Below, one piece after another: positions 14,614-45,657 of a stretch of DNA of 64,000 nucleotides. Made by a program: the position numbers and the translations under genes. Origin of the DNA: Hippea alviniae EP5-r (lineage in GTDB: Bacteria; Campylobacterota_A; Desulfurellia; Desulfurellales; Hippeaceae); the NCBI RefSeq assembly GCF_000420385.1, contig NZ_ATUV01000001.1, forward strand, positions 62,001 to 126,000, in the 5' to 3' direction. The notes under the pieces are model-generated. The model was not told the origin of the DNA and did no database searches. It saw nothing but the letters and a program-made list of their open reading frames with translations. The stretch's first letter is position 1; the number at the start of each line of letters is the position of its first letter.

Positions 14614-14625
14614 AAGGGCAATGTT

Positions 14626-14804
14626 AGCCCTGGGGCATGCGTGATGGACTTTTTTCCTTAGAGCCAACACCTAACAATGGGGAGCCGGCTTCAGGTGTTA
14701 GGCGGGCAAGCCTTCGCAAGAAGGACATACCACCTGCACCTGCGACGCTCCCACCTATCGTTGTTAGGTTCTAGGAAGAAGATCGCACACGGTGCCCTGG
14801 GGCT
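14626..14804 (+). ncRNA. ssrS: Probable 6S RNA
   Basis: The 231-base gap before the cyclo-ligase gene is GC-rich, unlike its surroundings, and folds as one long rod. The ends pair (14626-14637 with 14793-14804, all Watson-Crick or G-U). Inner stems are ACCTAACAA 14669-14677 with 14761-14769, GGGAGC 14680-14685 with 14747-14752, and an apical CCTTC-GCAA-GAAGG hairpin at 14711-14724. The length of about 179 and the position just upstream of 5-FTHF cyclo-ligase match ssrS-ygfA in many Proteobacteria. 6S RNA binds sigma70 RNA polymerase and dampens transcription. I found no SRP or tmRNA motifs. A weak promoter (TCGACA, 18 bases, TACATT at 14596-14601) may drive it. Confidence 0.72.
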
Positions 14805-14844
14805 ATTTAAATAAATTTATTGGCAATACGCCTGAGGATAGGCT

Positions 14845-44292: not shown

Positions 44293-44313
44293 TCAACCCC
44301 CAAGTAGCGCACA

Positions 44314-44342
44314 ATCCTATTACAAATAAGCATAATTGTCAA
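44314..44342 (-). promoter_or_regulatory. Sigma70-like promoter of the ffh-rpsP operon
   Basis: On the minus strand TTGACA (44342-44337) and TAGGAT (44319-44314) are separated by 17 bases. The predicted start is only about 15 bases before the ffh ATG. Confidence 0.6.
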
Positions 44343-44396
44343 TATCAATTGTTTTCGGAAATTATATTATAATAATTTTCTCATTTCAAAACAAAT

Positions 44397-45082
44397 TTAA
44401 GAAGGCATCTTACATATATCTTGAAAATGCTCTTCTTTTTCTAAGCATGATGCTATAGCGTTTACTTTTCTTTCTTTTAAGCAGTTATGTATTGTTTCAA
44501 ACACCTTCTCAAAGCGCTCTTTTTCGCTGTTTAGTTTTATGTCGCTTGTGTCAATTGCAAACAGCTGACTTTCTCCTTTATCTGTTTTTAAGTATAGCCC
44601 AAATCTTTGTGGCTGTTGTTTGCCTAATTTAAGAGTCGTTAGCTTTATTTTGCAGTTAGGGTTTTTCTCTAAATATACTTTTGATATGGTGGGCATGATG
44701 CAAAAACCCTGAGTAATAACAATTACTGTGTCGTTTTGAGAGTCAAAAACACATTCTGTCTCTAATTCAAATGTTGAGTCTCTGTTGCAGTTATAGGTTA
44801 TAAGAGCGACTTCATTATTTGAAATCTCGGATAATTCTTTAACCATAGGATTTTCTTTATCCTGCTCTATCTTCATTTTGCCTTTTTCTCCATTTTTCAA
44901 TACAAAATCATTTGCAGGGTCTAAAATGACATAGCTTTCTACTCTTTTCTCTTTGAACTCTTCAAAGAGTTGCCACATAAGTCTTAAAAAGTCTTCTTTT
45001 TTTTTTGCACTATGCTGTCTAATTTTTCTCTTTTTACATAATACCTAAACATTACACCCTTTGCTTGGCCTATGCTTAGCAT
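44397..45082 (-). CDS. Unrecognised protein interrupted by an A10 frameshift
   Basis: The ATG at 45082 follows a strong GGAGG site and encodes MLSIGQAKGVMFRYYVKREK, then reaches ten consecutive A bases (44997-45006). In the zero frame it stops at 44984 after 32 residues. In the +2 (-1) frame reached by one extra A it continues as KKKEDFLRLMWQLFEEFKE and on to 44397, giving about 227 residues in all. The downstream frame has its first ATG at 44978, but with no ribosome-binding site. The joined product looks cytoplasmic and mixed alpha/beta; I recognise no domain. Transcript slippage, phase variation, or a real break are all possible. Confidence 0.65.
44997..45006 (-). other. A10 homopolymer, candidate slippage site
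   Basis: Ten uninterrupted A bases on the coding (minus) strand at codons 26-29 of the gene. This is long enough for RNA polymerase slippage, as known for A9-A10 tracts in dnaX of Thermus and in some insertion sequences. Adding one A (or losing two) restores a single open frame. Confidence 0.8.
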
Positions 45083-45217
45083 AGTACCTCCTTTTTGGGT
45101 TTTTTTGGGTTTGTTTGACTTAAAAACCGTCCTAAAAGCACTTTTTTATATACTGCCATTAAAATGTTCATGTGTCAATATGAAAGTCATAGGTTGCTTT
45201 TTTAGCTGCCAATAATT

Positions 45218-45233
45218 TTGAACATAAGTTCAA
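45218..45233. promoter_or_regulatory. Perfect inverted repeat overlapping the -35 box, candidate operator
   Basis: TTGAAC-ATAA-GTTCAA is an exact 6-base inverted repeat. Its left arm is the -35 hexamer, so a dimeric regulator binding here would block RNA polymerase. No regulator gene is adjacent. Confidence 0.5.
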
Positions 45234-45246
45234 TAAGTGATAAAAT
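45218..45246 (+). promoter_or_regulatory. Sigma70-like promoter of the DUF5320/NifX cluster
   Basis: TTGAAC at 45218-45223 and TAAAAT at 45241-45246 are separated by 17 bases. The predicted leader before the DUF5320 ATG is about 72 bases. It is divergent from the A10 gene; the remaining part of the 242-base gap holds no other gene that I can support. Confidence 0.6.
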
Positions 45247-45324
45247 AACATCTTGAATCTTTTTGAAAAAGGAGTATTAGTTGAATTGAAAATATGAAAA
45301 AAAATGTTTTAGGAGGTGATAAAG

Positions 45325-45657
45325 ATGCCTTGGGGTGATAGAACAGGTCCATTAGGATACGGACCAAGAACAGGCAGAGCTTTGGGTTATTGCTCTGGCA
45401 ACTCTGTGCCTGGTTATATGGTAGGTGGCCCTGGTTTTGGAAGAGGCTGGGGCTTTGGCAGAGGAAGAGGCTTCGGCAGAGGCTGGGGTTGGCATCGTGG
45501 CTGGGGTCCTGGCTGGCAGGGTTATGCACCCGTAGTTCCTTATGCTTATCCTGACAAAGAAACAGAGAGAAAGGCTTTAGAGACTCAGATTGAATCTCTT
45601 ACCCGTTCTATCGATGCTTTAAAGAACAGACTTAGTGAGTTGGATAAAGAAGAGTAA
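45325..45657 (+). CDS. DUF5320 Gly/Trp-rich protein
   Basis: This 110-residue protein begins MPWGDRTGPLGYGPRTGRALGYC, the start pattern of DUF5320 proteins. The middle (about 40-70) is a Gly/Arg/Trp/Phe-rich low-complexity stretch (FGRGWGFGRGRG). The C-terminal third is a coiled coil (about 78-108). Members are usually found beside NifX-like and Mrp-like iron-sulfur ATPases, as here. The function is unknown. AGGAGGTGA precedes ATG 45325. Confidence 0.85.
   Translation: MPWGDRTGPLGYGPRTGRALGYCSGNSVPGYMVGGPGFGRGWGFGRGRGFGRGWGWHRGWGPGWQGYAPVVPYAYPDKETERKALETQIESLTRSIDALKNRLSELDKEE

What the first reader, a model, noticed from the sequence alone, without database searches (positions are those of the whole stretch)
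44397..45082. Unknown gene split by an A10 tract: slippage, phase variation or decay
The only good ribosome-binding site is at the 32-codon frame starting at 45082. That frame stops just after ten A bases, but one added A joins it to a 190-residue open frame with continuous helix-like sequence (KKEDFLRLMWQLFEEFKE). The downstream frame lacks its own ribosome-binding site. Retaining a long open frame behind the tract argues against old decay. RNA polymerase slippage at A9-A10 is established in other bacteria; its use here is inference.
Basis: partly seen in the sequence, partly recalled or inferred. Interest (0 to 1): 0.75.

Follow-up and report, generated by a model that had tools for sequence, protein, structure and literature searches.

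The report
Orphan gene bridged by A10 slippage
A gene found in only one species of a heat-loving sulfur bacterium is broken into two reading frames at a run of ten A's; the copying enzyme probably adds an extra A some of the time and so still makes the whole protein, because four species of the same genus carry another gene that is broken and still conserved in the same way.

Summary
On the minus strand a 32-codon frame with a strong ribosome-binding site (start 45082) stops just after A10 (44997-45006). One extra A joins it to a 200-codon open frame ending at 44397. Coding statistics support both pieces, and a frame this long did not arise in 2,000 simulations. A10 is the longest genic A-run in a genome that has only 12 A/T runs of 9 or more, about 15-25 times fewer than expected.

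The gene is an orphan at a rearrangement joint, so the direct test (the same joined frame in relatives) cannot be made. An indirect test worked: a YdbH-position gene is also split at a nine-A run, also one A short, in this genome and in three others of the genus, at two different sites. Its downstream frame is conserved and has no start signal near the tract.

RNA polymerase slippage therefore probably bridges A-tracts in this genus, and probably makes some joined protein here; it fits better than ribosomal frameshifting. Whether that protein is useful, phase-variable or the remnant of a fresh indel cannot be told from DNA. The kind is known: bacterial poly-A transcriptional slippage.

The parts
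44397..45082 (-). Whole split gene; 228 residues if one A is added at the tract
45087..45092 (-). Shine-Dalgarno AGGAGG, 4 nt before ATG 45082
   Evidence: sequence; pairing energy -12.7 kcal/mol
44984..45082 (-). Zero-frame short ORF, 32 codons; ...CAA AAA AAA AAG AAG ACT TTT TAA
   Evidence: coding score gene-like
44997..45006 (-). A10 tract; also contains the A_AAA_AAG heptamer in the zero frame
   Evidence: longest genic A-run in the genome
44397..45044 (-). -1 open frame (stop to stop) that carries about 200 coding residues after the tract
44976..44978 (-). First ATG of the downstream frame, 5 nt after the TAA of the short ORF (reinitiation rival); no Shine-Dalgarno
44874..44876 (-). Later in-frame ATG with a moderate Shine-Dalgarno (-6.4 kcal/mol); would give about 160 residues
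44949..44969 (-). 9-bp hairpin 27 nt after the tract; no more stable than shuffled sequence, too far for a standard frameshift stimulator
44300..44345 (-). Conserved ffh promoter/leader; left edge of conserved DNA at the rearrangement joint
45215..45320 (+). Conserved DNA upstream of the DUF5320 gene; right edge of conserved DNA at the joint

Best explanation
The locus is one species-specific protein-coding gene whose DNA is one A short of an open frame at a poly-A tract. RNA polymerase slips on the A10 tract and adds an A in part of the transcripts. Those mRNAs encode the 228-residue protein; the rest give a 32-residue peptide. Shown: the two frames, the tract, the start signal, the coding character of both halves, and long-term conservation across A9 splits in another gene of the same genus. 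Inferred: that slippage happens at this tract, that polymerase rather than ribosome does it, and that the product is used. The likeliest origin is contraction of an in-frame A11 to A10, tolerated because slippage supplies the missing A.
For: Strong start signal only at 45082, and both frames coding. A-runs of 9 or more are depleted about 15-25-fold (12 observed against 185-300 expected), the signature Baranov et al. 2005 read as selection against slippage (PMC1088944). Of 73 runs of 9 or more A/T checked in four genomes of the genus, five split a gene at the tract: this one and the YdbH-position gene in all four genomes. All five are one A short, and each has at least 9 A. The YdbH-position downstream frame keeps 39-51% identity among the four split copies, with codon position 2 changing least and position 3 most, and has no start with a ribosome-binding site near the tract. 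The split site differs in one species (alignment column 370 against 287), so bridging was used at two tracts. Polymerase slippage at A-tracts mainly adds As (tssM1: 10-15 As from an 11-A template, about 20-25% frameshifting; PMC4256274), matching the direction needed. Ribosomal shifting is less favoured: a 7-nt slippery site does not need 9 As, no stimulatory fold stands out, and the genome has both Lys-tRNAs (UUU and CUU), the situation in which Thermus dnaX uses polymerase slippage (PMC5009743).
Against: The gene itself is an orphan, so no comparative test reaches it. Antonov et al. 2013 expect orphan singleton frameshifted genes to be mostly gene overlaps, indels or sequencing errors (PMC3711429). 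No reads, RNA or peptide data are available. The frame break comes after only about 28 codons, so a non-functional gene would look the same if the indel were recent. The long frame's synonymous-codon score is weak (0.014 against a gene mean of 0.075).
Confidence: 0.5

Rival explanations
1. Recent inactivating indel: a functional gene lost one A in the tract by replication slippage and is now a young pseudogene; any bridging is incidental.
For: Poly-A tracts are indel hot spots; the gene is an orphan at a rearrangement joint; published base rates for orphan frameshifted genes favour this or error.
Against: No second lesion in 200 codons, and the genus tolerates A9 splits in a conserved gene.
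Confidence: 0.19
2. Phase variation: the tract length changes in DNA between cells (10 A off, 11 or 8 A on), switching the protein.
For: Long homopolymer near the 5' end of the gene, typical of slipped-strand switching.
Against: Nothing in the sequence suggests a surface or DNA-modifying protein; A10 is short for a switch; no population data.
Confidence: 0.1
3. Base-calling or assembly error: the chromosome has 11 A and the gene is in one frame.
For: A single base in the longest genic homopolymer; the orphan status removes any cross-check.
Against: Most A9 tracts of this assembly that lie in genes leave the frame intact, and ftsK A10 tracts are called in frame in three sister genomes, so undercalling is not general. 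The analogous split recurs in two single-contig genomes.
Confidence: 0.1
4. Ribosomal -1 frameshifting on A_AAA_AAG, as in E. coli dnaX, joins the two frames.
For: The exact heptamer lies in the zero frame.
Against: No significant downstream structure, no internal Shine-Dalgarno 10-14 nt upstream, two Lys-tRNAs; the YdbH-position sites are A_AAA_AAC and all have at least 9 A.
Confidence: 0.06
5. Two overlapping units: the 32-codon frame is a leader peptide and the long frame is translated by reinitiation at ATG 44978 (5 nt after its stop) or from the internal ATG 44876.
For: Coupling geometry at 44978; moderate ribosome-binding site at 44876.
Against: Leaves unexplained why the overlap holds the longest genic A-run of the genome, and discards gene-like frame upstream.
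Confidence: 0.05

Closest known systems
Citrobacter rodentium tssM1 (A11, transcriptional slippage; PMC4256274)
   Same: DNA one A short of the full frame, poly-A before a premature stop, full length restored by an added A
   Different: tssM1 has intact homologues and experimental proof; here an orphan without RNA data, A10 instead of A11, and the break near the 5' end
Thermus thermophilus dnaX (A9 polymerase slippage; described in PMC5009743)
   Same: Thermophile, run of 9 or more A, two Lys-tRNAs in the genome
   Different: In dnaX slippage makes the short product and the long one is in frame; here slippage would make the long product
Frameshifted genes of insect endosymbionts rescued at poly-A (cited in PMC5009743)
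   Same: An indel in poly-A tolerated because slippage corrects 12-50% of transcripts
   Different: Those genomes are reduced, AT-rich endosymbiont genomes; this is a larger, probably free-living genome that strongly avoids runs of 9 or more
E. coli dnaX -1 ribosomal frameshift (A_AAA_AAG)
   Same: Same heptamer in the same phase
   Different: No upstream Shine-Dalgarno or significant downstream stem-loop found here, and two Lys-tRNAs

Membership tests
Transcriptional (RNA polymerase) slippage genes | Run of at least 9 A or T inside the overlap of two frames | tested here: met
   A10 at 44997-45006, inside the overlap
Transcriptional (RNA polymerase) slippage genes | Same ORF arrangement conserved in a non-identical homologue (criterion of PMC1088944) | tested here: inconclusive
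   No homologue of this gene exists in the sets searched; the criterion is met by the YdbH-position gene of the same genomes
Transcriptional (RNA polymerase) slippage genes | mRNA heterogeneous in tract length | not testable with these tools
   No RNA reads available
Programmed -1 ribosomal frameshifting | X_XXY_YYZ slippery heptamer in the zero frame | tested here: met
   A_AAA_AAG
Programmed -1 ribosomal frameshifting | Stimulatory stem-loop or pseudoknot 5-9 nt downstream, or internal Shine-Dalgarno upstream | tested here: not met
   z-scores -0.32 and -0.35, stable hairpin starts 27 nt downstream; no Shine-Dalgarno within 15 nt upstream. Pseudoknots were not modelled
Phase-variable (contingency) gene | Tract length differs between cells or strains | not testable with these tools
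   Only one genome carries the gene
Pseudogene | Additional stops, frameshifts or loss of coding signature | tested here: not met
   200 clean codons after the tract, coding score positive only in that frame; a very recent lesion is not excluded
DUF4340 (Pfam PF14238) | Profile score above the gathering threshold of 25 bits | tested here: not met
   16.9 bits, E 0.008

The most novel reading that the evidence does not exclude
Species of this genus routinely keep genes whose DNA is one A short at A9/A10 tracts and depend on RNA polymerase slippage to express them. The frame break can sit at different A-tracts of the same gene in different species (YdbH-position gene), so slippage acts as a standing buffer that lets indels persist in a free-living thermophile.
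Probability: 0.35. Interest if true: 0.6.

Novelty: new member of a known kind. Interest (0 to 1): 0.42.

Why it matters
Gene finders treat such loci as pseudogenes or as two small genes. If slippage bridges A-tracts in this genus, an expressed 228-residue orphan and a conserved membrane-anchored gene are being mis-annotated. It would also be a case of persistent slippage-rescued genes in a free-living bacterium rather than in endosymbionts, secretion systems or insertion sequences.

Tried and rejected
Homologues of the downstream frame: two genome contigs/viral_contigs hits are chance matches (the Desulfotruncus hit is a corrinoid protein sharing EKNPNCKI); none in phages or plasmids; two hits at E 8e-4 and 4e-3 among 386 genomes were judged chance. 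Pfam, NCBIfam, PHROGs and PDB gave nothing above threshold. AlphaFold from a single sequence gave pLDDT 39.6 and the PDB fold search nothing significant, so no fold is claimed. My first label 'AsmA-like' for the split control gene has no Pfam support; it is named only by its position before a DUF1318 (YdbL) gene. Three further computed 'splits' (L070, L110, L112) are antisense or intergenic and were discarded.

Full report
WHAT IS THERE. On the minus strand an AGGAGG sits 4 nt before ATG 45082. The frame runs 32 codons, through CAA AAA AAA AAG AAG ACT TTT, to TAA at 44984. The A10 tract is at 44997-45006. Adding one A continues into a frame that stays open to the stop at 44397, giving 228 residues. 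The start signal at 45082 is stronger than the average of 16 neighbours (-12.7 against -8.3 kcal/mol), while ATG 44978 has none (-1.5) and ATG 44876 a moderate one (-6.4). A codon model trained on 51 window ORFs rates the short frame as gene-like (0.25 bits per codon; 1.5% of out-of-frame segments reach this). The long frame is coding (0.146, all other frames negative), though at the weak end and with little synonymous-codon bias. In 2,000 Markov simulations of the region no 200-codon frame appeared.

THE TRACT IS EXCEPTIONAL. The host genome (1.75 Mb, 4 contigs) has 12 A/T runs of 9 or more: one A12 between genes, this A10, and ten A9. Markov models of the window predict about 185-300. Baranov et al. 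2005 (PMC1088944) read such depletion in AT-rich genomes as selection against transcriptional slippage. From genome size and contig number the host is probably Hippea alviniae EP5-r, and three relatives probably H. maritima (G008), H. medeae KM1 (G004) and H. jasoniae (G001).

NEIGHBOURHOOD. In the relatives the block ffh-rpsP-KH-trmD-rplS and the block DUF5320-NifX-like-Mrp lie apart. Only in this genome do they meet, with about 900 bp of unique DNA between them that holds the split gene. So the gene is a species-specific orphan at a rearrangement joint. No relative was found in the other 8 genomes of the genus, in 386 broader genomes, in the 25 genomes of the phylum, in phages or in plasmids.

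AN INDIRECT TEST. Because this gene has no homologue, I asked what happens at other A-tracts of 9 or more in the genus. Of 73 runs in four genomes only five split a gene at the tract: this one, and in every one of the four genomes the gene just upstream of a DUF1318 (YdbL) gene, i.e. in the position of ydbH. Each break is at xTA AAA AAA AAC with exactly 9 A and each is one A short, the same direction as here. In three genomes the break is at the same alignment column (287); in G001 it is 83 columns further on, at another A9. The gene is in one frame in G002, G006 and G010. The downstream frame stays 39-51% identical between the split copies, with position 2 changing least and position 3 most, and lacks a start near the tract. 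Two of these genomes are single contigs. So in this genus A9 tracts have been bridged over evolutionary time in a conserved gene. This supports, but does not prove, the same at the A10.

MECHANISM. Polymerase slippage is preferred over ribosomal shifting. All five tracts have at least 9 A, whereas a slippery heptamer needs fewer. The YdbH-position sites end in AAC. RNA folding after the A10 is no better than shuffled sequence. The genome has tRNA-Lys with both UUU and CUU, which Atkins et al. 2016 (PMC5009743) link to the use of polymerase slippage in Thermus dnaX. Polymerase slippage mostly adds As (tssM1: 10-15 As from an A11 template, about 20-25% frameshifting; PMC4256274), the direction needed in all five cases. 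A_AAA_AAG is nevertheless present in the right phase, so a ribosomal contribution is not excluded.

RIVALS. A recent indel without function, a phase switch, and a wrong tract length in the assembly all fit the DNA of this locus. General undercalling of homopolymers is unlikely, since most A9 tracts in genes are in frame and ftsK carries in-frame A10 in three sister genomes. Antonov et al. 2013 (PMC3711429) expect most orphan frameshifted genes to be overlaps, errors or mutations, and this lowers my confidence. Rockah-Shmuel et al. 2013 (PMC3812077) show that indels arise and are bypassed at the same repeats, so 'fresh indel' and 'slippage-bridged gene' may both be true.

VERDICT. Observation confirmed. 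Slippage is the most likely working explanation (about 0.5); function of the product is unknown and unshown. It is a new member of a known kind. The conserved A9 split of the YdbH-position gene across the genus is the stronger finding.

Noticed in passing
L095 1406-1414 (G000 C2:171605); L088 (G008 C1:114284); L089 (G004 C1:1691242); L090 (G001 C11:208448): A large gene just upstream of DUF1318 (ydbH position) is split by one base at an A9 tract in four genomes of the genus, at two different positions, and is in one frame in others. The downstream frame is conserved.
   Followed up: yes
L098, L120, L136 (A10) and L075 1798-1806 (A9): ftsK carries A10 in three genomes and A9 in the window's genome in its lysine-rich linker, in frame, despite strong avoidance of such runs. 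Out-of-frame reading after the tract meets a stop within 0-18 codons, so slippage would give FtsK without its motor.
   Followed up: partly
window 44300-45320: Genome rearrangement joint: the ffh block and the DUF5320-NifX-Mrp block are neighbours only in this genome.
   Followed up: yes
window 14624-14807: 6S RNA (Rfam RF00013, 72 bits, E 2.9e-12).
   Followed up: no
window 45316-45657: The DUF5320 gene probably starts at ATG 45325, which has a very strong ribosome-binding site, rather than at GTG 45316.
   Followed up: no
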